Virus record (IMG/VR): IMGVR_UViG_3300020152_000005 | Coordinates: 1 to 56,521 of that record | Reading direction: 5' to 3' (one strand) | Length of the DNA stretch: 56,521 bases | Origin: a virus | Shown here: one piece after another, positions 14,657-34,363 of the stretch | How positions within the stretch are numbered: position 1 is the first letter of the stretch | Layout: every line of letters begins with the position of its first letter | Position numbers and translations under genes: made by a program | The notes under the pieces: generated by a model | Seen by the model: only the letters and a program-made list of their open reading frames with translations | What the model was told of the DNA's origin: nothing | Database searches by the model: none

Positions 14657-17600
14657 CTACTTCTCCCCCTTCGTTCCCGGTCGGAAGAACGGCCGCCCGG
14701 TGCCGCCGGCGGCCCGGTGCCTCGAGCTGATCCTGCGGCTGAATTCCTCTGCCATCAGCGCGCCGGCCTTCGGCGCGGCCGCAACGAGGCTCTTGCCGTC
14801 GCCGCCCGGTGCTTCGACAGTGACCTGCAGGCTCTCGATCGTGATCCCGCCGCCCGCGCCGAGCGTCGCCGGCAGCGGTGCAGCGATCGAGGTCGGTTCC
14901 GGTGCCCTCGAGCCGCTCAGCAGCGCGTGAATCGCCGCGAGGTGATAGACCTGCGTCGAGCCTAGCGCGATCAGTTGCGAGCCCTGCGCTTCGGTCAGGT
15001 TCACGGCCAGCCGCGCGACGTTGTCGCCGCCGCCGCCGATGACGCCGCCGCCTTCCTCGAGCAGCCGCTGCGTCTCTTCGAGCACGCGCTGCGCCTGCTC
15101 GGCCGTCATGCCCTCGAAGATGCCGCCCGCAGCGAAGAGGCTCTGATCGCCGGACGCGAGACGCTCGACGAGCCCGTCGATAAACGCGTCCGCGCCGCCG
15201 GCCGCCATCGCCGCCTGCAGCGCCTGCCCGAACGCCTGAGCGCCCTTCGTGTTCAGCAGGATGTCGACGAGCTCCTGCAGCTGCGCAGCCGCGTCGCCCG
15301 CCTCGTCGCCGAGCAGGCCGAATTTCCAGTTGAGCCCGTCGATCCGGCCCTCGAGCGTGTCGCCGAAGACGCCGATGCCCATCTCTTCGAGCTTGTCGAG
15401 CGCCGCCTCGAATTCGGCGCGCATGACCTTGTTGCCGTCTTCGATAAACGTGATGCCGGTCGCTTCCTGCAGGCGCATGAGCTCGGCGAGCTCTTCGGCG
15501 TCGCGCACGCGCAGCGATCGAAACTCGAGGCCGAGCGGGTTCTCGTCGGCTGCGGCGAAACGCTCCTGCATTCGCTGGCCGGCCGCGAGCGCGCGCTCGC
15601 GCTCGCCCGCCGTCATGTCCGTCACGACTGCGCCGGTCAGCTCTTCGAGCGCACGAATGAGCTGAGCCTCTGACGTGATCCGCTCGTAGTGCCTGCGCCG
15701 TCGCTCGCGCTCTTCGTCCTTGTTGCTGAAGAGCGAGCCGACCGTCTGCGCGATGCCGCCGATCAGTCCGGGGATCGCGGTCACGTCGCCTGCCGCGACG
15801 CGCGCCGCGTTCGCGCCGACCTGAATCAGGCCCTCGATCGCCCGCGCCGCGTTCGAATCGATCAGGCCGAGCGCCTCAGCCAGTTGCAGCGCCGCGCGCG
15901 CGTTCTCTTCGATCGTCCGCGCCGTGTCGCGCAGGTTGTTGATCGTTTCCTGATTCGCGAGCGCCTGCATCTCGCGCCGCGCGTCCTTCGCCGCCTCGCT
16001 CTGTTCGTTCAGCGCGCCGGCGACGCTCTCCGCGCGCTCGTCGATTTCCTTCAGCAGCTGGCTCGCGTCCTCGTGCGCCGTCGTGCCTTCCTCGAGCGTC
16101 TCGATGTACCGCTCGAGGCTGCCGTAGAGCATCTGCAGCTCGTTGAGCGCGAAGTCGCTAACCTCGTCGCCGAGCTCTTCGAATGACCGCTGATACATCT
16201 CGAGCGCGCCCGTCGAGCTGATCTGCCGCTCGAGCGCCTCGAAGGCTGCCAGCACGTCGGCCGGGATCTCGCGGCCTGCTGCCTCGAAGGTTTCTTCAGC
16301 GTCGCGGCGAAGCTGCTCGAGCGCGTTGCGCAGGTCGTCGGTCGCGGTCGCGGTCAGGGCCGTAAGCCGGCCGATGATGTCGCGCTGCATCTCGTCGGCG
16401 CGATCGCGCGCCTTCTGCAGGCGCTCTTCGGCGTCCGCGTCGACCGTCTCTGCCGCCTCAGCGGTGCCGTCCGTGATCAGACCGAGCGCGCGCCTGATAC
16501 CGTCTGCCTCGGCCTCGAGCTGCGCGACGCGCGCGTTGCTCGCGACGCTCTGCACTTCGTTCAGTTGCAGGATCTCGGCTTCGATCTCTTCGAGGCGGCT
16601 GCGCTGCTCGCTGCGCGAAATCGCTTCCTCGAGCGCCTGCTCGTTTGCCGTCGTCGCTCGAATCAGCTGCGTACGACGTTCCTCGAGCGCGATGATCTCG
16701 CTGAGGTGCGCTAGGTACTCGGCCGCTGCCGTCGCTCGCATCGAATCGCCAGCACGCGTAGCCTCGGCGAGCTCTTCGTTTGCCTCGGCGCGCATTGCGC
16801 GCAGGCGGCTGAGGCTTACGTCGCCGACCGCTTCGCGGCCGCGTGCCCCGCCCCCGCTCATACCGCCTGCCGTCCTGCCGACCTGCTTCTCGCGCAGGAA
16901 TTCGATCTGCGTTGCGAGGTCTTCGGCTTCCTCTCGCGCCTCTTTCATGCGCTGCATCAGCTCGAGCGGCAGCACGTGCTCGGCAGCGACGCCAGCCTGC
17001 TGCAGCTTCACCGCGAGCTGCTCGAGCGGATCGAGAAATCGAGAGACGAGGCCGGTCAGCATGTCGACCGCGCTCGCGAGCGGACCCTCGAGCTTCTGCG
17101 CGAGGTTCACGGTCGCCGGGATCGTGTAAGCGCCGATCTCTTCGCGCGCCGCCTGCAGGCGGTTCCGCCAGCTCTGCAGCCCGCCGAGGTTGCCCTCGAG
17201 CTGCCTCTGATACTCGCCCTGCACGCGCGCACCGGCGGTGATGATCGCGTTGAGTAGCGCCTGCTTCTTCTCGAGGTCGCTCATCGAAGCTGCCGTCTTG
17301 CCGTTCGCCCGCGCCCACTCTTCGTAAATCTGGCTCGGGTTCATCTGCAGCAGCTTGTCCGTACCTTCGTCGAGCCCGCGCATCGTCTGCTCGAGCGCGA
17401 CGTTCACTTCGGCCGCGCTCATGCCCTGCGCAGCGCCGAGATCGAGCGCGCGCGTCAGCAGCTCCTGCGACCGGGTCGCGTCGCCGGCCTTCGACGCCAT
17501 CTTCGCGACCTGTACCGCGATTTCGTTCGCCGCGGTCGCGGTCATCTGAAACTCGCGGCGGCCGCGCTGCGCGAGCTCGATCAGTAGCTGCTGGTCGACG

Positions 17601-17950
17601 CCGAAGAGCTTTGCCGCCGAGCTCAGGCGCAGGTAGCTCCTGATCAGGTTCTCGGCGTGCGTGACCTGCGCGCCGAAGAAGCGCACGGCGGCCGCGGTGC
17701 CGCGTGCCATTGCGCCGACGATCTGCACGAGGAAGAAGCCCGCGATCGCTGCGCCGACCGCCTTGAAGAGGCCGTTCAGCTTGCCGAGGTTCTTCCGCCA
17801 GCCGGCGACGTGCTGATCGCTGGCTTCCTCGCCGGCCTTCTTCGCCCGCTTCTTCACGCCGTCGAGGTCGCGCTCGAGCTGATCCATGCGCGCGCTGACC
17901 CATACGGCGAGGTCGCCTGCGTTGATTGTCTCAGTCGGTCCGGCGGCCAT
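14657..17950 (-). CDS. Tail tape measure protein
   Basis: 1097 residues, ATG at 17950 behind the strong site GGAGAGAG. A basic N-terminal helical part is followed by a hydrophobic segment near residues 64-84 (AVGAAIAGFFLVQIVGAMA). Long coiled-coil stretches (about 330-640) and a C-terminal beta region follow. Length, repeated helices and a membrane-like segment are hallmarks of tape measure proteins, which set tail length and help DNA pass the inner membrane. From length and the usual ~0.15 nm per residue, a tail around 150-165 nm would be expected (inference). Confidence 0.9.
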   Translation of the reverse strand: MAAGPTETINAGDLAVWVSARMDQLERDLDGVKKRAKKAGEEASDQHVAGWRKNLGKLNGLFKAVGAAIAGFFLVQIVGAMARGTAAAVRFFGAQVTHAENLIRSYLRLSSAAKLFGVDQQLLIELAQRGRREFQMTATAANEIAVQVAKMASKAGDATRSQELLTRALDLGAAQGMSAAEVNVALEQTMRGLDEGTDKLLQMNPSQIYEEWARANGKTAASMSDLEKKQALLNAIITAGARVQGEYQRQLEGNLGGLQSWRNRLQAAREEIGAYTIPATVNLAQKLEGPLASAVDMLTGLVSRFLDPLEQLAVKLQQAGVAAEHVLPLELMQRMKEAREEAEDLATQIEFLREKQVGRTAGGMSGGGARGREAVGDVSLSRLRAMRAEANEELAEATRAGDSMRATAAAEYLAHLSEIIALEERRTQLIRATTANEQALEEAISRSEQRSRLEEIEAEILQLNEVQSVASNARVAQLEAEADGIRRALGLITDGTAEAAETVDADAEERLQKARDRADEMQRDIIGRLTALTATATDDLRNALEQLRRDAEETFEAAGREIPADVLAAFEALERQISSTGALEMYQRSFEELGDEVSDFALNELQMLYGSLERYIETLEEGTTAHEDASQLLKEIDERAESVAGALNEQSEAAKDARREMQALANQETINNLRDTARTIEENARAALQLAEALGLIDSNAARAIEGLIQVGANAARVAAGDVTAIPGLIGGIAQTVGSLFSNKDEERERRRRHYERITSEAQLIRALEELTGAVVTDMTAGERERALAAGQRMQERFAAADENPLGLEFRSLRVRDAEELAELMRLQEATGITFIEDGNKVMRAEFEAALDKLEEMGIGVFGDTLEGRIDGLNWKFGLLGDEAGDAAAQLQELVDILLNTKGAQAFGQALQAAMAAGGADAFIDGLVERLASGDQSLFAAGGIFEGMTAEQAQRVLEETQRLLEEGGGVIGGGGDNVARLAVNLTEAQGSQLIALGSTQVYHLAAIHALLSGSRAPEPTSIAAPLPATLGAGGGITIESLQVTVEAPGGDGKSLVAAAPKAGALMAEEFSRRISSRHRAAGGTGRPFFRPGTKGEK

Positions 17951-22352: not shown

Positions 22353-23393
22353 TTAGAAGCCCGCGTTGACGACGTAGACGGCCTGCTCGATCGGCATCGG
22401 GATCGCGTTCAGCTGCGCCTCTTCCTCGAGCGTCTTCCCGTTGTTCTGCGGGTTGAGGAAGAGAGCCACGTCGTTGCGATTCACGCGCCGGTCCTTCGAC
22501 GCGTACTCGAATGCCCGCGCGACCGGCGCGAAGTGCGTCGCACCGACGACGCCCGAAGGCGGCTGGAAGAGCACGCGCCCGGTCGGCACGTACTTCGTCG
22601 GGGACGTGACGAGCGGGTTCGTCGTCGGCTTGTCGTACGTGCGCTCATCGATGATGACGCGCACCTCGCCGTAGCCTTCCTGCTCGAGAACCTGCTCGAT
22701 GTTGCCGGCGGTCACGCGCGGAATCGCGGTGCTCGTCGGCGCGGTCGCGACGACCGTATTCAGCGTCGCGCGGCGCATCCGAATCGCACCCACGCCGCCG
22801 AGCATGTCCTGCGCAGCGTCGAGGTGATAGACGAGACGCGCGTACGCGCCGCCGGTGACGACGTTCCACGCCTCGCCCTCGGCGACGTACCGCGCCGCGT
22901 CCAGACCGAGCGAGACGACGGTCGCTTCCTTCGTGACCGGATCGAGCACCGTGATCTGACCGAGCGCCCACGCCTCGAAGGCGTCGACCTCGATCTGCCG
23001 GTACGCCGCTCCGGCGAGGATGCTCGCCCACTCGTCGACGTCCTTCATGATGATCCCTGCCGCGACGCTGTCGACGCCTTCCGTGCGCTCCGTCAGAAGC
23101 TGCAGGTAGTGCTCGTCGAACGTGTGCTTCGGGTTGATCGGGATCATCTCGAAGTCCCGGCGAGGCGGCAGCACATCCGGGATCTCGTGGCCCTGCGCGT
23201 TCCACTCGCGCCGCAGACCGATCGGGCGGAATTCCCGCTGCGTGATCTCGCTGATGCGAATCGACCGCGTCTCGCGACGCGGGAAAATCGCCTGCCAGCG
23301 CAGCTGGTCCGGGTTGCTCGCGAGCCTCGTCTGCTCGCGCAGCGTGAGGTTCCGCCCCTGCAGCGCCTCGAGCGCGGGGAGCTGGTATCGCAT
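22353..23393 (-). CDS. Major capsid protein
   Basis: 346 residues, ATG at 23393. Size, position after scaffold and decoration genes, and features typical of the lambda gpE-like branch of the HK97 fold support the call. These include an N-terminal RRETRSIRISEITQ region, a central P-domain-like helix region and the C-terminal SKDRRVNRNDVALFLNPQNN segment. It forms the head shell. No protease gene is seen, and a separate scaffold is encoded instead. Confidence 0.88.
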   Translation of the reverse strand: MRYQLPALEALQGRNLTLREQTRLASNPDQLRWQAIFPRRETRSIRISEITQREFRPIGLRREWNAQGHEIPDVLPPRRDFEMIPINPKHTFDEHYLQLLTERTEGVDSVAAGIIMKDVDEWASILAGAAYRQIEVDAFEAWALGQITVLDPVTKEATVVSLGLDAARYVAEGEAWNVVTGGAYARLVYHLDAAQDMLGGVGAIRMRRATLNTVVATAPTSTAIPRVTAGNIEQVLEQEGYGEVRVIIDERTYDKPTTNPLVTSPTKYVPTGRVLFQPPSGVVGATHFAPVARAFEYASKDRRVNRNDVALFLNPQNNGKTLEEEAQLNAIPMPIEQAVYVVNAGF

Positions 23394-24709: not shown

Positions 24710-24973
24710 TCAGGGCTGCTCGGTCGGCCGGGTCCTGAGCCCGTCGAGCTCGTCGCCGAGATCGATCGCTTCCTGCAGGTCCGCGATCTGATCGTCGGTC
24801 GCTTTCTCGTACCCCTGCCAGCTCTCGTCTTCCTCGTCTCGAGCCCAGAGCAGCGGGTCGTCGTCGGTTACGATGCCGACGTAGACGCCGTCGCCGTACT
24901 CGGCGCGCATCGCCTCGAGCTCGAGGCGCAGGTGCTCGCGCTGCTCTGCGTTCAGCGGGTCGCGTCCGCTCAT
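24710..24973 (-). CDS. Acidic hypothetical protein, 87 aa
   Basis: The ATG at 24973 (MSGRDPLNAEQREH) overlaps the stop of the giant MuF protein as ATGA. It is very acidic (ATDDQIADLQEAIDLGDE), with a Trp/Tyr patch. Being coupled to a likely toxin-bearing head protein and acidic, it could be a partner or immunity-type factor for that protein. This is inference from position only; no family is recognised. Confidence 0.75.
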   Translation of the reverse strand: MSGRDPLNAEQREHLRLELEAMRAEYGDGVYVGIVTDDDPLLWARDEEDESWQGYEKATDDQIADLQEAIDLGDELDGLRTRPTEQP

Positions 24974-27900
24974 CTCGCCCTCTCGACCTTCATGACCTTG
25001 TCGAAGCCGAAGACCCACCACTCGTGCTCGTGCTCGTACCCGCCCGCGTGCCACCAGTACGAGCGCATGACGTCGTCCCAATCGAATTCAGCTTCGAATT
25101 CGTGCGAGCCGCCGTAGCTGCCGCGCACCGACGTCCATCCGGTTACGCCGTTGTGCCTGAAGACGCCGACCGTGCCGCTCGCCGGCTCTGGGATCTGCTG
25201 ATGCTGGAAGTAGTGCGAGACGCGCCGCCAGAGCTTCACCTTCGGCACCTGCAGCACCTCTTCGCCCATCGCTCGGTTGAAAGCGCGCTCAGCGCGCAGC
25301 GCGGTGATGACGTCCTCTTCCTTGAAGCGCCCGCCGCCCGTCAGCGCGTTGCGACCTGCCGCGAGAAACTGCTGCTGCTTGACCGGATCGAGGTTGATGT
25401 AGCCATTCCAGTACGTGTTGACCGCGCCGGCGTCGACGACGCCGAAAAACTTGAGGCCCATCGCCGCGTCGCTCTGCGCGCTGCCCTGCCAGCTGCGGTA
25501 CATGGCTTCGATGTGCTGCTCGATCGCGCGCGCCGTCGAGTTCTTCACGCCGCGCGCCTCGAGCTCGGCGATGACGAAACGCTGCCGCACGTCGCTCGCT
25601 CGCTTGCGTGCCGCCATCGCGTTCCGCGCGCCGTGGCCCTTCCCCTGCGCGATCGCCGCCTTCAGCTCGGTGACGTCGGACGCGACGAGCGTCTGCTGCA
25701 CGTGCGCGACCGCGCGCGCGACCTGCGCCTTCTCTTCCGGCGTACGCGCGGCCGCGCGCTTCAGCTTCGTCTTCTCGAGCAGATCCTTCATCTCGCGCTC
25801 GAGCCGGATCTTCTCAGCCGCGTAGTTGCGGATGTCGTCGCGCTTCTTCGCGAGCAGTTTCGACCGCGCCGCGAGCATGTCGACGATCTTCTTCCGGTCG
25901 GCGACGTCCCACTCTGGGAAGCTGCCGCGCACGTACGCGTCCCAACCGCCGAGCGCCTTCTCGAGCGCGAGGATCTGATCGATCTGCGCGATCAGGCGGT
26001 CGCCCATGTCGCCCGGCGTCAGGCCCGCCTTGCTGAAGACCGAGCTGTACGCCGGGTTCTTCGACATGAACGCGTCGTACTCGGTCAGCTGCTGCAGCAG
26101 GCTCTCCTGCTTCCGCCCGGCCTTCGCGCGCATCAGGAACGTGCCGCCCTGATCGATGCGCGCGATCCTGCCGTTCGCGAGCACGACGACGTTGTCGAGG
26201 CTCATGCCGACCGCGTCCCAATTCGCGGTAAGCATGTCGGCACCGAAGCCGTCGAGGATCTTGTCGGCGAGATCCTTCGTCAGGCCGAGGTCTTTCACGG
26301 TGCCCTTCACGTCGAGCAGCGGCGTCGCGTGCGCCCATTTGCCGTTGTGCTCGAAGACGACGCTCTCGGGTGCCTCGAGGCCGAGCCGGCGGTAGAGATC
26401 GTTCGCGAGCGCCTCGCCTCGAGCCTGCGCCGGGTCGTCGTAAAACTTTACGTACCGCCGAACGCCGTCCGTGCCCTCGTAGATCCCGCCGGGGTTCGAT
26501 CCGCTCTGGGGTCCGACCTGCTTTCCGAGGATCGTCTTCGCGTCGCCGGCGACGATCGGCCGCGGTGCGCCCGCGTCGACGGCGGCCGCCTTCACCTTCT
26601 TGCCCTTCACCTTCTGCACGGTCGCCTGCGCAGCGTTGACGCCCGCCGCCTGCGCTGGCGTCTGCGCGACATTCTGCGCGACGGCCGCCTTCAGGCCCGC
26701 CGGCGTCTGCGCGGCCTGCACGAGCAGTTGCACTTCCTGATCGAATACGCTCTTCGCCGCGAGCTCGGCCGCCGCGACGTCGCCGGTGTCGTCGAGCGTC
26801 TTCAGGTATGCCGCGTACTGCTTCTCGAGCGCGCTCTTGATGACCTGCACGCGCTCGTCATGCGTGAGCGTCTTCAGGTGCTTCGCCACTTCCGGCCCGA
26901 ACGTCTTGCCGGGCAGCGTCTTGCTCTTCGCGATCTTCTCGGCTTCCTGCAGCGCGAGGTCGAGCTTCTTCTTCGCTGCAAACTTCGCCGATGCCTTCTT
27001 GTTCGCGCCCTGCTTCGCAGCGATCGCCTTCTCGACGTTCGCGATCAGCGTCGCGATCGCCGCGTCGTACGTGTTCCCGCCGAGCTGCAGGTCTACCTCG
27101 AGCACCGCGCCCTGCTGCAGGTCTTCCAGCTTCGCGAGCATCGCCTTCAGCTCGGGCAGGCTGTTCTTCGCTGCAGCGATCTTCGACGCGTCGGCGATGT
27201 CCGCGGCCTGCGCGATCGCCGCGGTGCCCTTCTCTTTCAGCAGGTGCTCGAGCGTGTGCTTCGTGTCGTTGTACGACTGCAGCAGCTTCTGCGACCGCTG
27301 CTGCAGCAGCAGGCTGCCGCTCTTCGCCGTCTCGACGATCGCCTGCGACCATTTCGGGTCGCTCTTGAGCAGCTTCAGCTCGTTGAGGTCGCTCGCGTTG
27401 ACGACCTTCTGCTCGAGCTCGTCGAGCAGCTGCGCCGCGAGCTTCGCGGCCGCGGTCTTCTCGGCAATGACAGCCTGCAGCGACGTCTTTGCCGTCGTCA
27501 GCTTCGCGATCAGGTCGTCGAGGCCCGCCTTCTTCGCGAGCGCGATCGCGTCGTCGAGCTCGAGGCCGAACGCGTCCGCCTCGTCGATCGAGCCGACGAG
27601 CACCTTGCCCGCCTGCTCGAGCAGGCCCTTCGCCTTCGCCTGCGCGGCTTCCTTCGCGGCCGCCAGCGCCTTAGCCGCGGCGCTGTTCTTCGCGGAAAAC
27701 TTCTGCGATGCCGCCTTATTCGCGGCGCGGCGTGCGGCGAGGTTCTTCGTCGCGAGCTCGAGCGCTTCCTCGGCGACGTGCTGCGCGCCGGTCGCACCGG
27801 CCGCCTTCGCCTTGTCGATCGCGGCCTGAGCCTGCGCGATCGCGGCCTTCATCTTCGCGATGACGAGCTTCTCGGCCGCGGCCGCCTCGAGCGCCGCCTG

Positions 27901-29031
27901 CGCGGCCGCCATCGCTTCTTGCTGCTGCGCGAGCTGCGCGGCCGCGAGGCCCGCCAGCGGGTCAGGGCCGACCGCGCCCGGTGCCTTCCTGACGCGCGCG
28001 ACAGCCATCGCCCGGTTCAGCTGCACGAGCTGGCTCGGCGAGAGGTTGAAGAGCTCCTGCACGTGCCCCGGCGACCATTGCACCTTCGGCGGCCGCGGCA
28101 GATCCTGCCCCCACTCTTCCTCGGGTCGCAGGACGTGCACGTGCGGGCAGAGGCAGCGCGGGTGCGGCCGCGGCGGCACGCGGCGCTTGTCGAAGACGCC
28201 CGGACCGAGGCCGTGATGATCCGCCTTCGCGAAGACGTCGCAGACGTCGGTACGCGGGTGCCGGTTGCTCAGCAGCCAGCGGATCGCCGAGACGACCGGG
28301 CTCGCCTCGGCCGCGGCGATCGCGGCCTCGTGCTCGGCGTTCGCCATCTCGGTCCGCGCGATCAGTTGCGCGGCGTTCGCGACGCGTCCGGCGCGGGTGC
28401 GGAAGTGCCGCAGGTTCGCCGGCGTCGGGTCGACGCCGAGCTTCTCGAGCGCCGCCTTCGTGATCCGCCGGCGATCGAGCAGCAGCTCGTCGGGAATGTC
28501 CTCGCTGCCGACGACGGTCAGGCGCAGCTGCCGCGCGAGGTCCGTGCTCGAGGTGCCGGTCGCGGCCGCGTTGATCAGGGTGCGGTCGACGTCGCGCACG
28601 AGGTCGCCGCGGATCGTCTTGAACGCCGCGCTCAGCTCCGGGCGGCTCAGCATCGCCTGCGCGGCCGCCACGTCGACGCCAGCGAAGACGCCGGCGACGC
28701 TCAGGCCGCTGCCGACGTCCTGCAGCAGCCGGGCGGTCGCGAGCGCGTGCTTCTCAACGACGGCGCGCGCGGTGATCCCGATGCCCGTCGCGACGCTCTG
28801 CTCGAGCTCCTGCGTCAGCTCGGCGATCAGCCCGCGCGCGAGGCCCCGGAACGCCTCGGCGCGGTTGAACGTGCCCGGCTTGATCCGGGCCGTCATGTCG
28901 TCGAGGAAGTCCTGCAGGCTCAGCAGCAGCTTGCGCGTCTGCGCCTCGCCCATCGCGAGGCCGATGCGCCGCGCGCCCGCGAGCTCGCGCGCGTAGCGGC
29001 TGCGCCCGCGGCCCTGCGGCTCAGCAGGCAC
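24970..29031 (-). CDS. Giant MuF-type minor head protein with kinase-like and ADP-ribosyltransferase-like modules
   Basis: 1353 residues; GTG start at 29031, with GAGGAA in the portal end as ribosome site (an ATG 26 codons later is an alternative). Residues about 1-300 are SPP1 gp7/Mu gpF-like: IARTEMANAEHEA near 215-230, then NRHPRTDVCD and PHPRCLC. An Ala/Lys coiled-coil region spans roughly 330-800. Near 827-965 is a kinase-like unit: GGIYEGTDGVRRYVKFY, GEALANDLYRRLG, TANWDAVGMSLDN and RIDQGG, comparable to the Lys, Glu, Asp/Asn and Asp positions of HipA/PI3K-like kinases. Near 1265-1344, LWRRVS, GWTS and GYEHEHEW match the R, S-T-S and ExE motifs of ADP-ribosyltransferases. Coupled to portal and to a small acidic gene. 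Head role firm; enzyme modules inferred. Confidence 0.85.
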   Translation of the reverse strand: MPAEPQGRGRSRYARELAGARRIGLAMGEAQTRKLLLSLQDFLDDMTARIKPGTFNRAEAFRGLARGLIAELTQELEQSVATGIGITARAVVEKHALATARLLQDVGSGLSVAGVFAGVDVAAAQAMLSRPELSAAFKTIRGDLVRDVDRTLINAAATGTSSTDLARQLRLTVVGSEDIPDELLLDRRRITKAALEKLGVDPTPANLRHFRTRAGRVANAAQLIARTEMANAEHEAAIAAAEASPVVSAIRWLLSNRHPRTDVCDVFAKADHHGLGPGVFDKRRVPPRPHPRCLCPHVHVLRPEEEWGQDLPRPPKVQWSPGHVQELFNLSPSQLVQLNRAMAVARVRKAPGAVGPDPLAGLAAAQLAQQQEAMAAAQAALEAAAAEKLVIAKMKAAIAQAQAAIDKAKAAGATGAQHVAEEALELATKNLAARRAANKAASQKFSAKNSAAAKALAAAKEAAQAKAKGLLEQAGKVLVGSIDEADAFGLELDDAIALAKKAGLDDLIAKLTTAKTSLQAVIAEKTAAAKLAAQLLDELEQKVVNASDLNELKLLKSDPKWSQAIVETAKSGSLLLQQRSQKLLQSYNDTKHTLEHLLKEKGTAAIAQAADIADASKIAAAKNSLPELKAMLAKLEDLQQGAVLEVDLQLGGNTYDAAIATLIANVEKAIAAKQGANKKASAKFAAKKKLDLALQEAEKIAKSKTLPGKTFGPEVAKHLKTLTHDERVQVIKSALEKQYAAYLKTLDDTGDVAAAELAAKSVFDQEVQLLVQAAQTPAGLKAAVAQNVAQTPAQAAGVNAAQATVQKVKGKKVKAAAVDAGAPRPIVAGDAKTILGKQVGPQSGSNPGGIYEGTDGVRRYVKFYDDPAQARGEALANDLYRRLGLEAPESVVFEHNGKWAHATPLLDVKGTVKDLGLTKDLADKILDGFGADMLTANWDAVGMSLDNVVVLANGRIARIDQGGTFLMRAKAGRKQESLLQQLTEYDAFMSKNPAYSSVFSKAGLTPGDMGDRLIAQIDQILALEKALGGWDAYVRGSFPEWDVADRKKIVDMLAARSKLLAKKRDDIRNYAAEKIRLEREMKDLLEKTKLKRAAARTPEEKAQVARAVAHVQQTLVASDVTELKAAIAQGKGHGARNAMAARKRASDVRQRFVIAELEARGVKNSTARAIEQHIEAMYRSWQGSAQSDAAMGLKFFGVVDAGAVNTYWNGYINLDPVKQQQFLAAGRNALTGGGRFKEEDVITALRAERAFNRAMGEEVLQVPKVKLWRRVSHYFQHQQIPEPASGTVGVFRHNGVTGWTSVRGSYGGSHEFEAEFDWDDVMRSYWWHAGGYEHEHEWWVFGFDKVMKVERAR

Positions 29032-29037
29032 GCGCCG

Positions 29038-30825
29038 CTATTCCTCGATCTCGCCGGTCGGGTCGCCGCCCTCGCCCTTCCTCAGCGCGTCCTGCGCGGC
29101 CTGCCGCTCGGCCTCTTCCTGCTCTTTCTCGAGGTCGTTCGCCTCGACGGCATCGAGGTACTCGTCTTCGACCTTCTCGAGCTCGGCGTCGTCGGTGATG
29201 ACGCGCTTCTCGCGTGCGAGCAGCTTCAGCGCGCGCGCGGTCGCGGTCGGCGACGAGACGCCGGACGTCATCTGCGCCTCGAGGAACGCGACGAGGTCGT
29301 CGGCGACCGGCACGAGGTCAAACTCGCGCGGCCAGCGCGCCGAGCCGCTCGGCTGGCCGCTCTTCACGGTGCCGAATCGCAGCTCGAGGAAGTAGATCGC
29401 CGTGTTCTGGGCTTCCTCGAGGTTCGCCGCCATCAGCGCGAGCCGCGGGCTCTTCGCCTCGCTGAAGCCGGCTTCCTTCGACGCGCCGGAGCTGTCCGGC
29501 GTCGAGCTCGCTTCGTTCATCATGACGCGCTCGACGACGTCGAGCTTCGACGCGAGCCGGCGGTCGAAGACGTCGGCCGTCACTGCGCCGGTGCTGCCGT
29601 CCTGAATGCTGACGCTGTCCGTGCTCGCGCCGCCGAGCTTCGCCTGACCGCTCGACGGCACCGGGATGTAGCGGTTGCCGCCGGCGACCTTCGCCATCGC
29701 CGTGTTGAACGCTTCCGGGTCGACGCCGACGAGCCACGTGATCGACGTCGCCGCGTCCCACGCGTCGAAGTCGGCCGCGCTGTCGAGGTTCATGTAGCTG
29801 ACCGCGATCTGCCCCATCTCGGTCAGGCCCGGCCTCGAGATCGCGGGCCGTTCCTTCGTGCCCTTGTCGCGCTCGTAGAAGAGCGGAAAGAGCGGGATCT
29901 GCCCGCGCGTCTTCGTCCAGTCGCCGAAGCCGATCAGCTCCTTCTCGGCGGTAAACTTGTACCAGCCGCCGCGCGGGATCAGTGGCTGGAATCCGCGGTA
30001 GCTGTCGGCGACGAGCAGCAGGAAGCCGTCTTCGCTCGCGTTGCCGACGAGCTTGCCGTCGACGAGGCGCGGGTTGCGAATCGGCACGCGCACGATCGCG
30101 AACGCGAGCTGACCGTTCTCGTAGTGCCAGTTGATGACGTCGAGCGGCGAGAATTCGACGAGGTACGGCCGCAGGCCCCTCAGCTCGTCGGCGAACGTCC
30201 GCGGCTGCGCCTCGGGTGCGTCGACGAAAATCCAGCGGTGCCCGGTCGCAGCTGCGCGCTTCGTGACGTCGGCCCAGAACGCGTCCCACTGGCTGCCGTC
30301 CTGCCCGGTGCCGGTCGCGTTGTAGTAGACGAGCTCGGCGCGCGTCGGCTCCGCGCCCGCGCGATCGCGTCGCACCTCGCCGAGCGTGCCGAAGCTCAGG
30401 CCCTTGCCGGGCTGCGGTGCCTCGCGGAAGAGGTGCCCGACGAGCGTCGACGCAAACTGCTCGGGGAAGTTGACGTAGCTCGCCTGCGCCTGCCGCGCAC
30501 GGTACGCGGCCCCGGTCGCACGTTCCCAATCGAACGGCCGCAGCTCGTCGAGCACTTCGTCGCCGCCGCGCAGCCGGCGCTCGTTGCGCTGCCACGCGCT
30601 GAATTCCGCCTGCGCGAAGATGCTGCCGACGAGCGCGAGCTCGCCGAGCGGTGACGTGTCGCCGTCGAGGCGGTTGCCCTCTCGCGTCGCCGGCGCGCTG
30701 TCCTCGGCCCATGCGACGTAGACCGGGTGCTTCTCGTCGAGGAACGCGAGCTGCTCCTTCGACACTGTGGGCCGACCGCTCTCTGCGTTCTCGGCGTCGC
30801 CTGCGTACGTGACCGTCTCTGCCAT
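29038..30825 (-). CDS. Portal protein (DUF4055-like)
   Basis: 595 residues, ATG at 30825 behind AGGAGAGCACC. It forms the dodecameric ring at the head vertex through which DNA passes. Recognised by size, its place between the large terminase and the MuF protein, and sequence features of the DUF4055-type portals: N-terminal RATGAAYRARQAQASYVNFPE, YNATGTGQDGSQWDAFWADV, and an acidic, helical C terminus rich in Glu and Gln. Confidence 0.85.
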   Translation of the reverse strand: MAETVTYAGDAENAESGRPTVSKEQLAFLDEKHPVYVAWAEDSAPATREGNRLDGDTSPLGELALVGSIFAQAEFSAWQRNERRLRGGDEVLDELRPFDWERATGAAYRARQAQASYVNFPEQFASTLVGHLFREAPQPGKGLSFGTLGEVRRDRAGAEPTRAELVYYNATGTGQDGSQWDAFWADVTKRAAATGHRWIFVDAPEAQPRTFADELRGLRPYLVEFSPLDVINWHYENGQLAFAIVRVPIRNPRLVDGKLVGNASEDGFLLLVADSYRGFQPLIPRGGWYKFTAEKELIGFGDWTKTRGQIPLFPLFYERDKGTKERPAISRPGLTEMGQIAVSYMNLDSAADFDAWDAATSITWLVGVDPEAFNTAMAKVAGGNRYIPVPSSGQAKLGGASTDSVSIQDGSTGAVTADVFDRRLASKLDVVERVMMNEASSTPDSSGASKEAGFSEAKSPRLALMAANLEEAQNTAIYFLELRFGTVKSGQPSGSARWPREFDLVPVADDLVAFLEAQMTSGVSSPTATARALKLLAREKRVITDDAELEKVEDEYLDAVEANDLEKEQEEAERQAAQDALRKGEGGDPTGEIEE

Positions 30826-30835
30826 CGGTGCTCTC

Positions 30836-32242
30836 CTATCGCCTGCTGTCCGCGTACGCGTCCGGGTCCGCGACCGGCACGCCGTTCAACCGAATGAGCG
30901 CCTGCGTCATGCTGTCGACCTGATCGTCGTGCTGCCCGTTCGGGAACGCTGCAGCCTCAGCGACGAAATCGTGAATCCACGGTGCGAGCTCTGGGCTCGG
31001 CAGGAAGATGTTGCCGCTCTCCTGCAGCGGGCTGACCGCTCGAGCTCGTGCAACCTTATCGCCCATCGGGTTGACTGGCACGAGGCCCGGTACGCTGCGC
31101 GCGAGCTCAGCGATGATCGCCGGCCCGTTCGCCTTGTCCTCGACGAGCTTCAGCGCCGCGTACGGATGCTTCGCGCTGAACGTGCGGACGGTGAGCTTCG
31201 TTGCCGGGAAGTTTAGCTGAGCGCGAACCTGATCAACAAGATAGAAGTCGCCGCCGAGCTTCCCCCAGACCTGACCGACGACGTAGCTCGGGTCCTTGCC
31301 TTTGTCGTCGAAACTCATGTCCCACGAGACGACGAATAGCTCGAAGCGGAAGAGGTCAGGCAGCTTCGAGTAGAAGCGCCACGCGTCGCGCTTGAAGATG
31401 TCGCCGCTCTCCGGTGCAGGCCGCTCCTGAAAGAGCGCGTCGAAGTAGTAGCTGCCGATCGCGGTCTTGATGTTCAGCAGCTGCTCTTCGCTGCGGCGTT
31501 CAGGCCAGAGCGCCTCGCCGATCCTGCGGCCGAGCGGGTCGTCGACGTCGTCGGCGAGCGCCGGCAGCCTGATGACGTGCCACGGTTCGCCGCCCTCGTC
31601 GCCGAAGCGCTCGAGCCGGCCGGCGAGGTCGTCCTCGTGCCATCGCGCCATCGTCAGCAGCGCGACGCCTTCGCGGCCGTCTCGGAAGGGTTCGATGCGC
31701 GTGTACGCGGTCGACTGCCACCACTCCCAGACCTTGTCGCGGTAGAGCTGGCTGTTCGCCTGATCCGCGTTCTTGAAGGGGTCGTCGATCAGGAAGAGGT
31801 TTGCGCCCCATCCGGTGATCGGTCCGCCGACGCCGGCGGTCAGCATGCCGCCGCCGGCGGTCGTGTCCCACTGATTCGCCGCCGAGCTCTTCCTCGAGAC
31901 GCGCACGTTCAGCTCGCGGCCGTTCGTCTGAATCGTGTCGCGCACGGTGCGGCCCCAACGCGACGCGAAGCGCGCTTCGTACGACGTCAGGATGATGCGC
32001 ATCCACGGCCAGAGCTCGAGCGCCCAGACCGGCAGCCAGTGCGATGCGAGCTCGCTCTTTCCGTGTCGGGGCGGCACGCTGAGGATGACGCGCTTGTGCC
32101 GGCCGACGAGCAGCGCGACGAGCACCTGCGCAATGAAAAGCAGGTGACGTGCGGGAATCCAGCGGCCGCGGCTGAGCCGCTGCGCGAGCGTCGCCGGCGT
32201 CGCGCGCCAGAGCAGCTCGGGCCTAACGACCGCGGGCAGCAT
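30836..32242 (-). CDS. terL: Terminase large subunit
   Basis: 468 residues, ATG at 32242. It is the packaging motor ATPase and nuclease. Walker A is VPPRHGKSE (about 56-64) and Walker B is LFLIDDPF (149-156). A coupling motif LLTMARWHEDD follows. The RNase H-like nuclease starts at SWDMSFDDKG (about 320) and ends at the GQHDDQVDS acidic site. Its start overlaps the small subunit by 20 bases. Length is normal for the family. Confidence 0.95.
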   Translation of the reverse strand: MLPAVVRPELLWRATPATLAQRLSRGRWIPARHLLFIAQVLVALLVGRHKRVILSVPPRHGKSELASHWLPVWALELWPWMRIILTSYEARFASRWGRTVRDTIQTNGRELNVRVSRKSSAANQWDTTAGGGMLTAGVGGPITGWGANLFLIDDPFKNADQANSQLYRDKVWEWWQSTAYTRIEPFRDGREGVALLTMARWHEDDLAGRLERFGDEGGEPWHVIRLPALADDVDDPLGRRIGEALWPERRSEEQLLNIKTAIGSYYFDALFQERPAPESGDIFKRDAWRFYSKLPDLFRFELFVVSWDMSFDDKGKDPSYVVGQVWGKLGGDFYLVDQVRAQLNFPATKLTVRTFSAKHPYAALKLVEDKANGPAIIAELARSVPGLVPVNPMGDKVARARAVSPLQESGNIFLPSPELAPWIHDFVAEAAAFPNGQHDDQVDSMTQALIRLNGVPVADPDAYADSRR

Positions 32243-32882
32243 TCAGCTTCAGCGCGAGCTCCTGCGCCATCTCGAGCGCTTCCGGGTCCTCGAGCAGCGC
32301 GCGCAGTGCCGGGTCTTCGTCATGCCCGGCCGAGCCGCCGCCGTCGCGCAGGTCGACGATCGTCTCAGGTTCGCCGCGGTTCAGGCGCTCGAGCTTCGAG
32401 CCCTCGACGATCGCGCGGATCATGGCGTGCGGGCTGATCTTCTCCGGTGACGTGCGCAGCACGTTCAGCACGTTCGCGCCGAGCGTCTGCAGCGCGGTCG
32501 CGAGGCCGATCTGCCGGCGCGCCATCTCCTGCACCTCTTCCTTCTCGGCTTCCTCGCGCCAGCGCCTGCGCTGCTCGTCGACGTGACCGTCCCACGCGGC
32601 CGCGCGTTCGGGCCATCCGTTCTTCGAGCTCCAACGCCCGAAGTAGCCGGGTGCGCGCTCGCCTCGAGGCAGCTTCCGCCCGGTCGCAACCTCGTACGCC
32701 TTGTCGATCGAGCGGTCCTGCGGCAGCAGGTCGCGGTAGGCGACGAATCCGACGAATTGCTGAGCCGTCTCGCCGGGCTGCAGCTCCCACGGCTGCGCGA
32801 CGCGCGGCGTCGCCTTCGGCGCGGCCTTCTTCACGCGCGCCTTCTTCGTGCTCGTCGCCTTCGCCCTCTTCGGCTTCGTCAT
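32223..32882 (-). CDS. terS: Terminase small subunit
   Basis: 219 residues, ATG at 32882. A Lys-rich N terminus is followed by a DNA-binding helical region with YFGRWSSKNGWPERAAAWD (about 81-99), typical of small terminase subunits of the phBC6A51-like type. A coiled-coil oligomerisation region and a C-terminal acidic tail that would contact TerL follow. Its stop lies 20 bases inside TerL. It recognises the packaging site, whose position cannot be read from the sequence. Confidence 0.82.
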   Translation of the reverse strand: MTKPKRAKATSTKKARVKKAAPKATPRVAQPWELQPGETAQQFVGFVAYRDLLPQDRSIDKAYEVATGRKLPRGERAPGYFGRWSSKNGWPERAAAWDGHVDEQRRRWREEAEKEEVQEMARRQIGLATALQTLGANVLNVLRTSPEKISPHAMIRAIVEGSKLERLNRGEPETIVDLRDGGGSAGHDEDPALRALLEDPEALEMAQELALKLNAARGR

Positions 32883-34363
32883 CGGCGCGCCTTCTTCTTC
32901 CGAGGCTTCGCGTCCTCGAGCTCAGGCTCGAGGCCGAGGCGCTCGAGCTGCTCGAGCGTCGCTGCGACCGCGCCCGGTGCGTAGTCGATCGAGCAGCTGA
33001 GCCGTCCGGTCTGCTCCGCTGCGACCGCAACAAAGCCGCCGCCGGCGAAGAGATCGAGCACGACGTCGCCCGGTGCGGTGCTGTTCACGATGCCTCGAGC
33101 GGCGAGCGCTGCAGGCTTCTGCGTCGGGTGCAGGTAGTCGTCGCGCGGGTCGCGCTGAATCTCCCAGAGGTCAGACGTGCCGGGGTTCGGGATCAGCAGC
33201 AGGCTGCCCTTCTCGGGGAACGTCACGCGGCGGATCTTCGCCTTGTCAGGGACCTTCGCGCTCAGGAAAACCTCGACGCCCTCGTCGAGCAGGACCGCGA
33301 GCCCTGCGATGTTGTCGAGCGCGATCGGCGTCGTCGCGCCCTTGCCGCGGCGCGGCGTGATGCGCCAGACCGTCGACTGTGTCCGGTCGCCGTAGTGCTT
33401 CGGCGAGACGCCCGCGCGGCCGCCGTAGAATGCCGCCTCGTGCTGATAGTGGAACGTCGACCGACCGAGCACGAAACTCTCTTTCGCCCAGATCAGGTAC
33501 TGACGCTCCTGAAAGCCTGCGTTCTCGAGCGCGCGCTCGAAGGCGCGGCGGCCGTCCTTGTCAGCGTGCCAGACGTAGACGGCAGCGTCCTGCGCGAGGT
33601 GCGGGCTACCGGCGCGCAGCGCGAGCTCGAGCAGCTCCTGCAGCGCTCGGCCGTGCAGGTCGTCGTTCTGGACGCGCTTGTGCTTCGGGCTCGCCTCGTA
33701 CTCGACGCCGTACGGCGGGTCGGTGAAGAGCAGCTGCGCCGTCGTGCCGTTCATGACGCGCGCGACGAGCTCCGGGTCGCGGCTGTCGCCGCAGCCGATG
33801 CGGTGCGCGGCTCCCGGCGTCGTGATGCTCGGGACCGTCCAGAGCTGGCCGCGGTCGGTGCCCCACTTCTGCACGAGCCGGTCGGCGACGGCTTCCCACG
33901 GATCGTCGCTTACCTCGCTGACGTCCGCGGTGAAGCTGCTCAGGTCGGCGAGCAGTTGATCGAGGTCGTCAGCGTCGTAGCCGGTGCCGCTGAGGCTGCT
34001 CGTCTGCTCGAGGATCTCGGCGAGCACCTGCGCGAGGCGCTCGTCGCTGTACGTGCCGAGGTCGGCGATCCGGTTGTCGGCGATCAGAATCCTGAGCGCG
34101 GTCGCGTCGTCGACGTCGAGGATCTCGGCAGGCACTGAGCTCTCGCCGCGGTGCGCGGCCGCGAGGTAGCGGTGATTGCCGGCGAGGATGTATCCGGTCC
34201 GCTTCTGCACGAGGATGCGACCGTACCATCCGTTGACGTCGATCGATTCGACGATCGCGCCGACGTCGCCCTGCTTCGGGTTCTTCGGGTGCGGCCGCAC
34301 TTCGTCGAGCGCGACGTCGCGCAGCTCGCTCTTCACGCGTCGCATGTTGCCGGTCTTCGTCAT
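32879..34363 (-). CDS. ParB-domain / DNA methyltransferase fusion
   Basis: 494 residues, ATG at 34363. The first 130 residues form a ParB/sulfiredoxin-like domain (VRPHPKNPKQ, ILAGNHRYLAA, ADNRIADL). A permuted amino-methyltransferase follows. Its catalytic TDPPYG is near 213-218, and the AdoMet-binding LDLFAGGG near 435-442 comes after it, as in the beta class. HPTQKP precedes the AdoMet motif. It probably methylates adenine N6 or cytosine N4 in DNA; the ParB part may find or open the target. The tail is Lys/Arg-rich. It lies directly before the terminase genes, so methylation may be linked to packaging or defence evasion (inference). Confidence 0.92.
   Translation of the reverse strand: MTKTGNMRRVKSELRDVALDEVRPHPKNPKQGDVGAIVESIDVNGWYGRILVQKRTGYILAGNHRYLAAAHRGESSVPAEILDVDDATALRILIADNRIADLGTYSDERLAQVLAEILEQTSSLSGTGYDADDLDQLLADLSSFTADVSEVSDDPWEAVADRLVQKWGTDRGQLWTVPSITTPGAAHRIGCGDSRDPELVARVMNGTTAQLLFTDPPYGVEYEASPKHKRVQNDDLHGRALQELLELALRAGSPHLAQDAAVYVWHADKDGRRAFERALENAGFQERQYLIWAKESFVLGRSTFHYQHEAAFYGGRAGVSPKHYGDRTQSTVWRITPRRGKGATTPIALDNIAGLAVLLDEGVEVFLSAKVPDKAKIRRVTFPEKGSLLLIPNPGTSDLWEIQRDPRDDYLHPTQKPAALAARGIVNSTAPGDVVLDLFAGGGFVAVAAEQTGRLSCSIDYAPGAVAATLEQLERLGLEPELEDAKPRKKKARR

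What the first reader, a model, noticed from the sequence alone, without database searches (positions are those of the whole stretch)
24970..29031. Giant MuF head protein carrying kinase-like and ADP-ribosyltransferase-like modules: possible injected dual effector
Seen: a 1353-residue protein with a normal gp7/MuF N terminus. A unit near 827-965 has ordered motifs that could be kinase ATP-Lys (YVKFY), alphaC Glu (GEALAND), catalytic Asp/Asn (NWDAVG...DN) and metal Asp (RIDQGG). A C-terminal unit has LWRRVS, GWTS and GYEHEHEW, like the R-STS-ExE motifs of ADP-ribosyltransferases. Known: MuF proteins are bound to head or portal, some carry C-terminal toxin domains, and T4 packages the ART Alt. 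Inference: this protein may enter the cell with the DNA and modify host proteins by two chemistries. The combination of both modules in one head protein is the most novel candidate in the window.
Basis: partly seen in the sequence, partly recalled or inferred. Interest (0 to 1): 0.86.

Follow-up and report, generated by a model that had tools for sequence, protein, structure and literature searches.

The report
Phage head protein carrying a kinase
A virus of bacteria makes an unusually long head protein that contains a kinase-fold enzyme, and possibly a second enzyme at its end, which may travel in the virus particle and enter the infected cell with the DNA.

Summary
The gene is real: 1353 codons on the minus strand (24970-29031), directly after portal and terminase. 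Residues 1-315 are a head-morphogenesis (MuF/gp7-type) protein; in two portal relatives this protein has only 311 or 391 aa, so about 1,000 residues are extra here. The kinase half of the reading is well supported. Residues 827-1072 belong to a large phage family that no Pfam or PHROG model matches in this protein. Asp939, Asn947 and Asp960 are kept in 147 of 147 sequences, Lys862 in 146 (one gap). The predicted fold is confident and matches CtkA (Z 18.1), CotH and HipA. The ART half is not shown: the C terminus has ordered R/WTS/EHE motifs, but no profile match and no confident model. In 68 of 137 relatives a recognisable ART follows the kinase, and 11 of 111 complete proteins carry MuF, kinase and ART together, so the architecture recurs. 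One relative is annotated as particle-associated. Injection is inferred. A HipA-like kinase between portal and capsid genes was reported before in 'Gratiaviridae' phages. I judge this a new variant of a known kind (MuF/polyvalent virion effectors).

The parts
24970..29031 (-). whole gene: 1353-aa head protein with added kinase and C-terminal module
   Evidence: ORF and translation; phrog_1657
28087..29031 (-). residues 1-315: head-morphogenesis (MuF/gp7-type) core
   Evidence: phrog_1657 2.2e-20; BLASTP 30% over residues 9-314 with the 391-aa protein after the portal gene in L090, E 7e-26; PF04233 not matched
26554..28086 (-). residues 316-826: Ala/Lys-rich spacer, probably helical (inference from composition)
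   Evidence: no Pfam match below E 0.3 and one PHROG match at E 0.0085 to a tail collar fiber family; no match at E 0.05 among the other proteins then held
25816..26553 (-). residues 827-1072: HipA/CtkA-fold kinase domain
   Evidence: tblastn to 17 phages, 458 relatives in IMG/VR, 58 in GTDB genomes, AF2 model, fold matches, profile match to HipA
26446..26448 (-). Lys862, expected ATP lysine
   Evidence: 146 of 147, one gap; lies in the stretch that hhalign aligns with HipA
26215..26217 (-). Asp939 of NWD, expected catalytic aspartate
   Evidence: 147 of 147 (position partly selected by the fetching pattern); opposite the NxD of HipA only when the whole profile alignment is forced
26191..26193 (-). 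Asn947, expected metal-binding asparagine
   Evidence: 147 of 147
26152..26154 (-). Asp960 of RxDxGG, expected metal aspartate
   Evidence: 147 of 147
25552..25815 (-). residues 1073-1160: helical linker
   Evidence: predicted helices, pLDDT block means falling from about 90 to 61-65
24973..25539 (-). residues 1165-1353: C-terminal module, possible divergent ART (R1269/R1270, W1299-T1300-S1301, E1335/E1337)
   Evidence: position and ordered motifs only; no profile match; model unusable
24710..24973 (-). 87-aa acidic ORF whose ATG overlaps the stop codon (ATGA); unknown, possibly a coupled partner
   Evidence: best PHROG E 0.093
29038..30825 (-). portal protein
   Evidence: phrog_145 E 1e-31
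30836..32242 (-). terminase large subunit
   Evidence: phrog_38 E 3e-97
22353..23393 (-). major head protein
   Evidence: phrog_29 E 7e-10

Best explanation
A portal-neighbouring head-morphogenesis protein has been lengthened by about 1,000 residues that carry a HipA/CtkA-fold kinase and a C-terminal module that may be a divergent ADP-ribosyltransferase. The protein is built into the head through its N-terminal part, is carried by the virion, and its enzymatic part reaches the cytoplasm with the DNA, where the kinase transfers phosphate (or another part of ATP) to a host target early in infection. Shown here: gene position, head-family N terminus, conserved kinase-type active site, predicted kinase fold, recurrence of head + kinase + ART proteins in other phages. 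Inferred: packaging in this phage, entry into the cell, activity, any target, and the ART identity of the C terminus.
For: Head module next to portal and terminase. Active-site residues kept in all or nearly all of 147 domains. AF2 of residues 826-1353: kinase part with block-mean pLDDT 72-98, mostly above 84; Foldseek PDB best E 2.6e-5 CtkA; VIA-align CtkA Z 18.1, 225 residues, 3.5 A; CotH 14.7; HipA 13.3; HipT 13.1; actin-fragmin kinase 12.4; PI3K-type about 11. Profile-profile score to 14 HipA proteins 38.9 against at most 25.0 in 100 column-shuffled controls. ART in 68 of 138 C-terminal parts by own profile (window among the 70 without), PF03496 in 21 of 46 proteins, PF04233 in 17 of 46. 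Relative in Yersinia phage fHe-Yen8-01 annotated 'ADP-ribosyltransferase toxin' and 'phage particle associated protein'. Short head proteins in two portal relatives.
Against: No direct evidence of packaging, entry or activity in this phage. Pfam's MuF model does not match. ART unproven. Kinase profiles find no kinase chain in the PDB by sequence; the HipA profile match has hhalign probability of only 49% and covers 42 columns. 69 of 137 relatives lack an ART by profile, 9 of them cut off at the 3' side, and MuF and ART co-occur no more often than their separate frequencies predict (11 seen, 11.2 expected from 54 and 23 of 111). Most relatives were fetched with a pattern around NWD, so that motif is partly selected.
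Confidence: 0.6

Rival explanations
1. Kinase effector only: the C-terminal module is not an ART but another, unrecognised domain. The 'dual effector' is then a single-chemistry effector.
For: No ART profile, hhalign or family match; the strict STS form of the motif is not met; 69 of 137 kinase relatives have no ART by profile.
Against: Ordered R/WTS/ExE-like motifs at the usual C-terminal place (xTS pattern met by 39 of 68 ARTs, 2 of 66 other C termini, 60 of 5000 shuffles; pattern chosen after seeing the window).
Confidence: 0.45
2. The kinase acts late, inside the producing cell, for example to exclude other phages or to phosphorylate virion proteins during assembly, and is not injected. 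Superinfection immunity is the role proposed in print for the HipA-like kinase of 'Gratiaviridae' phages (PMC8008677).
For: Gene lies among the head genes; a published HipA-like kinase lies between portal and capsid genes and was read as late-acting immunity (PMC8008677, passages).
Against: Here it is fused to the head protein itself; PF04233 in 17 of 46 and PF06152 in 4 of 46 relatives; one relative annotated as particle-associated.
Confidence: 0.2
3. Polymorphic-toxin use: the C-terminal part is a toxin against rival bacteria or unlysogenised cells, with the 87-aa overlapping ORF as immunity protein.
For: MuF toxins of temperate phages are described (PMC5576092, passages); ATGA-overlapping small acidic ORF.
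Against: The small ORF has no family match and no BLASTP match (E limit 0.01) to the genes after the kinase gene in six named phages; toxicity untested.
Confidence: 0.15
4. Structural role only: the domain is a degenerate kinase used as a spacer or scaffold part.
For: Large Ala/Lys-rich spacer, as in structural fillers (sequence; inference).
Against: Catalytic-type residues kept across 147 domains from very different phages and bacterial genomes.
Confidence: 0.08

Closest known systems
MuF polymorphic toxins of phages (PMC5576092; EFV toxin of an Enterococcus faecalis prophage is a MuF-ART)
   Same: head-protein N terminus, C-terminal enzymatic extension, ART as a frequent payload, proposed delivery with DNA (passages read)
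   Different: a kinase of HipA/CtkA fold sits between head part and C terminus; the whole word 'kinase' occurs 0 times in that paper's main text
Polyvalent proteins of phages and conjugative elements (PMC5512222)
   Same: several effector enzymes in one virion- or element-borne protein, including ARTs and kinases (passages)
   Different: the kinases described there are said to have lost the C-terminal subdomain and to carry an insert between a conserved His and Asp, mainly in Verrucomicrobia-Chlamydia and Bacteroidetes elements; here the motifs are NWD..N..DxGG and 225 residues superpose on CtkA. Their alignment was not available, so overlap (some of our relatives are from Verrucomicrobia) is unlikely but not excluded
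HipA-family kinase of 'Gratiaviridae' gut phages (PMC8008677)
   Same: HipA-like kinase encoded between portal and major capsid genes (passages)
   Different: seen in five phages, in the passages read not described as fused to a head protein or an ART, and read as superinfection immunity; not compared by sequence here
HipA / HipT / CtkA / CotH kinases
   Same: fold (Z 18.1 CtkA, 14.7 CotH, 13.3 HipA, 13.1 HipT) and a weak profile match
   Different: phage-borne, embedded in head proteins; eight residues from catalytic Asp to Asn in the window against five in the HipA proteins; a HipB partner was not searched for
T4 Alt (ART packaged in the head and injected)
   Same: delivery principle and ART chemistry proposed for relatives (Alt as described in PMC5512222)
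   Different: no kinase part in Alt (recalled); ART not proven in this window

Membership tests
MuF/gp7-type head morphogenesis protein | N-terminal match to a head-morphogenesis family | tested here: met
   phrog_1657 E 2.2e-20, residues 214-312; six more head families below 1e-4
MuF/gp7-type head morphogenesis protein | match to Pfam PF04233 | tested here: not met
   no match at E 1e-3, not listed up to E 1; hence 'MuF/gp7-type', not PF04233 member
MuF/gp7-type head morphogenesis protein | gene next to portal, between portal and capsid genes | tested here: met
   portal 29038-30825, major head protein 22353-23393; a related protein follows the portal gene in L089 and L090
HipA/CtkA-like kinase superfamily | kinase fold closest to CtkA/HipA/CotH | tested here: met
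   predicted model
HipA/CtkA-like kinase superfamily | ATP Lys, catalytic Asp, metal Asn and Asp conserved | tested here: met
   K862 146 of 147, D939, N947, D960 147 of 147; their equivalence with HipA residues rests on a partly forced profile alignment and recalled HipA biochemistry, not on superposed coordinates
Pfam HipA_C (PF07804) | score over the curated cut-off | tested here: not met
   window: none; 3 of 46 relatives at E down to 6e-4, 16.1 and 19.1 bits against cut-off 30.5 in the two seen
HipBA toxin-antitoxin system | HipB-type DNA-binding partner beside the kinase | not tested
   neighbouring ORFs were not searched for HipB
ADP-ribosyltransferase (ADPrib_exo_Tox / ART) | family or profile match | tested here: not met
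   for the window; met in 21 (PF03496) and 8 (PF01129) of 46 relatives
ADP-ribosyltransferase (ADPrib_exo_Tox / ART) | R - STS - ExE motif triad | tested here: inconclusive
   R1269/1270, WTS, EHE present in order, but the strict STS form is not met and chance is not excluded
ADP-ribosyltransferase (ADPrib_exo_Tox / ART) | ART fold | tested here: inconclusive
   AF2 pLDDT 34.8 alone, below 50 in most of this part of the joint model
Virion-packaged, injected effector | present in virion and enters the cell | not testable with these tools
   only an annotation of a relative

The most novel reading that the evidence does not exclude
A widespread but undescribed class of phage head-borne effectors: a HipA/CtkA-fold kinase is the constant hub, mounted on head proteins and combined with ADP-ribose chemistry (ART C termini, Nudix enzymes fused or encoded two genes downstream), so that one packaged particle delivers phosphorylation and ADP-ribosylation together in the first minutes of infection; the late-acting 'immunity' reading of HipA-like kinases in gut phages would then be wrong.
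Probability: 0.35. Interest if true: 0.8.

Novelty: new variant of a known kind. Interest (0 to 1): 0.62.

Why it matters
If right, hundreds of phages carry a protein kinase in the particle that is not named by Pfam at its cut-offs; in the named phages opened here it is filed as 'hypothetical protein' or simply 'ADP-ribosyltransferase'. It gives a testable question: which host proteins are phosphorylated before any phage gene is expressed, and does the kinase work with, or regulate, the ART and Nudix enzymes that accompany it? It also offers another reading of the published HipA-like kinases between portal and capsid genes.

Tried and rejected

ART tests that failed for the window: iterated ART profile, phmmer against 58 other C termini (best E 0.019), hhalign of the last 178 residues against that profile and against a Verrucomicrobia-type group (scores 14.0 and 14.7, within the range of 100 shuffles), profiles of that group, pairwise alignment Z (best 4.7 from an Ala-rich stretch, rejected as composition), MAFFT with that group (the arginine motif did not line up), strict STS pattern. 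phrog_16625 'Bxa ADP-ribosyl transferase' (E 0.028) covers residues 199-307, the head part, and is no ART evidence.

Rejected: the +strand ORF 25024-30654 (1876 aa) as a gene, since it lies antisense to head and portal genes with clear families in a 69% GC record. The first translation was of the wrong strand. The C-terminal model was not used for a fold search because its confidence is too low, though its unreliable secondary structure (helices, then strands) would suit an ART. Absence from the VIA list was not used as evidence. HipA_C in three genomes of relatives: none.

Rows left out: alignment A5 has 96 of the 101 references printed (I left out L101, L122, L131, L136, L140); the recount has them all. 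A3 has 57 of the 63 possible (window plus 62; L036, L051, L065, L077, L086, L120 left out). A2 holds 46 of 59 eligible proteins because of the residue limit. Only the best 80 of 458 IMG/VR relatives were fetched, with some near-identical contigs among them. Of 17 records, 8 were opened.
Full report
WHAT IS THERE. The window is a virus record of 56,521 bases, about 69% GC, without tRNAs. The gene is on the minus strand: 24970-29031, GTG start, 1353 aa. Order on that strand: terminase large subunit 30836-32242, portal 29038-30825, this gene, a small ORF, a 240-aa protein of scaffold type (inference; no PHROG match), a 126-aa ORF, and the major head protein 22353-23393. The stop codon overlaps the ATG of an 87-aa acidic ORF (ATGA).

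N-TERMINAL PART. PHROGs puts residues 214-312 in a head-morphogenesis family (phrog_1657, 2.2e-20) with six related head families below 1e-4. Pfam's own MuF model does not match. The portal protein finds two relatives in IMG/VR (L089, L090; 43% and 42%). In these the protein after the portal gene has 311 and 391 aa, and the window protein aligns with the second over residues 9-314 at 30% identity, E 7e-26. So the head part ends near residue 315 and about 1,000 residues are extra in this phage.

KINASE PART. tblastn of the whole protein against 50,697 phage records gives 17 records, and all matches fall in residues 837-1075. Some are annotated as ADP-ribosyltransferase: Aeromonas phage ST4, Pseudomonas phages Dolphis and Jeremy, Yersinia phage fHe-Yen8-01. 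With that alignment 458 of 473 pattern-matching stretches in IMG/VR encode a relative, the best 80 kept, and 58 of 64 in GTDB genomes. In 79 unique sequences, and again in 96, Lys862, Asn937, Trp938, Asp939, Asn947, Asp960, Gly962 and Gly963 do not vary. In all 147 domains held, Asp939, Asn947 and Asp960 are 147 of 147, Lys862 146 and Glu873 145, the exceptions being a gap and, for Glu873, also one Asp; Asp946 is 135. The fetching pattern was drawn around NWD, so for those letters conservation is partly built in; Lys862, Glu873, Asn947 and Asp960 are free of that. The loop between Asp939 and Asn947 varies in length (shorter in Gordonia and Gastranaerophilales members) while both ends stay. The window's kinase part matches no Pfam or PHROG family; of nine members scanned one matches HipA_2 at E 0.0077, and ten PHROG families, most without a description, match one member each, best phrog_3162 at 3.9e-4.

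FOLD. AlphaFold2 on residues 826-1353 with 57 sequences gives the kinase part confidently (block-mean pLDDT 72-98 over the first 250 residues, mostly above 84), and nothing usable for residues 1182-1237 and 1258-1353. Foldseek against the PDB: CtkA at E 2.6e-5, then many protein kinases. VIA-align: CtkA Z 18.1 (225 residues, 3.5 A, 16% identity), CotH 14.7, HipA 13.3, HipT 13.1, actin-fragmin kinase 12.4, Fam20C 12.1, PI3K-type about 11. In the viral structure library the best hit is a 1220-aa phage protein named ADP ribosyltransferase (E 1.4e-15), and the third is named a portal protein. Sequence searches with the kinase profiles find no kinase chain in the PDB, and Pfam HipA_C reaches only 6e-4 in 3 of 46 relatives. 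So: same predicted fold and active-site pattern, a separate family.

C-TERMINAL PART. In relatives an ART often follows the kinase. Pfam finds PF03496 in 21 and PF01129 in 8 of 46 proteins, PF04233 in 17 and PF06152 in 4; single proteins with head domain, kinase and ART are listed (for example L014, L030, L047, L105, L106). With own profiles, 68 of 138 C-terminal parts hold an ART (the window is one of the 70 without; 63 of 131 after removing identical ones). Of 111 complete unique proteins, window included, 54 have ART, 23 MuF and 11 both (the MuF profile misses the window's own type, so this is an undercount, and 11 is what independence predicts). For the window itself the same ART profile gives no match, hhalign is at shuffle level, and the single-sequence model is worthless (mean pLDDT 34.8). 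What remains is motif order: the strict R-STS-ExE pattern is not met by the window (met by 35 of 68 ARTs, 1 of 66 other C termini, 12 of 5000 shuffles); an xTS pattern fitted to the window is met by 39 of 68, 2 of 66 and 60 of 5000; a looser one, met by the window, by 61 of 68, 17 of 66 and 701 of 5000. I put the chance of an ART here at about one half.

COMPANY. In Gordonia phage Forza the kinase protein (gp78) follows the portal, and an annotated ART (gp80) is two genes on: the pair can be split. In five of six named phages compared (ST4, Dolphis, phiT5282EW, fHe-Yen8-01, Mecenats66; not DSL-LC01) the kinase gene is followed by a ~160-aa gene and then a Nudix-like gene; by BLASTP at E 0.01, 9 of 10 pairs match for the first and 10 of 10 for the second, and PHROGs calls the second nudix hydrolase in the two tested. 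In fHe-Yen8-01 all three products are annotated as particle associated. No paper in the library holds that phage's name; a Klebsiella phage paper on a phage named in the same style, fHe-Kpn01, uses 'phage particle associated proteins' for proteins found in particles by LC-MS/MS (PMC7291057, one passage), so that meaning is an inference for fHe-Yen8-01. A strict Nudix-box pattern occurs inside the kinase ORF in 7 of 146 loci (two of them near-duplicates, L084 and L085), once beside it, and nowhere else in 2,019 kb; the pattern is too strict, since it misses L107, where Pfam finds NUDIX, and four of the five cassette genes. Pfam NUDIX is in 3 of 46 relatives.

KNOWN WORK. MuF toxins and ART payloads are described (PMC5576092, passages), as are polyvalent proteins with a kinase group described as different (PMC5512222, passages), and many phage ARTs fused to MuF (PMC9503650, passages). 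A HipA-like kinase between portal and capsid genes is described for five 'Gratiaviridae' phages and read as late immunity (PMC8008677, passages). Ten paper searches listed no paper that I recognised as describing a HipA/CtkA-like kinase fused to a MuF protein or to an ART; I judged most by title and abstract start only, and the library lacks most subscription journals and all bioRxiv preprints, so this is a limited negative.

VERDICT. Packaging and entry remain inference.

Noticed in passing
window 25024-30654 (+): 1876-aa ORF antisense to the head and portal genes; taken as a by-product of high GC, not a gene.
   Followed up: partly
window 24710-24973 (-): 87-aa acidic ORF whose start overlaps the stop of the head-kinase gene (ATGA); no family match; possible partner or immunity protein.
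   Followed up: partly
window 14657-17950 (-): 1097-aa ORF without any PHROG match at E 1e-3.
   Followed up: no
window 32879-34363 (-): 494-aa protein combining ParB-like and DNA methyltransferase families, upstream of terminase.
   Followed up: no
L007 5662-7866 and 8141-11194 (Gordonia phage Forza): Kinase protein and annotated ADP-ribosyltransferase are separate genes close after portal, with a separate 'MuF-like minor capsid protein' before it.
   Followed up: partly
L001, L002, L003, L004, L006: Conserved cassette: kinase-ART gene, ~160-aa gene, Nudix-like gene (five named phages).
   Followed up: yes
L084 and L085: Proteins near 4,970 aa (5' end open) with two matches to the kinase domain; L076 also shows a second match.
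   Followed up: no
L107 and plasmid NZ_CP091089.1 (Pseudomonas): Kinase with a Nudix domain in the same protein (Pfam NUDIX in L107; plasmid feature name).
   Followed up: partly
L095: Kinase-ART protein whose N terminus is a 2'-5' RNA ligase-like domain, with no head domain found.
   Followed up: no
L115, L119, L121, L123, L124, L126, L141: A second kind of kinase C terminus, not matched by the ART profile, with a conserved ENE motif; possibly another ART branch.
   Followed up: partly
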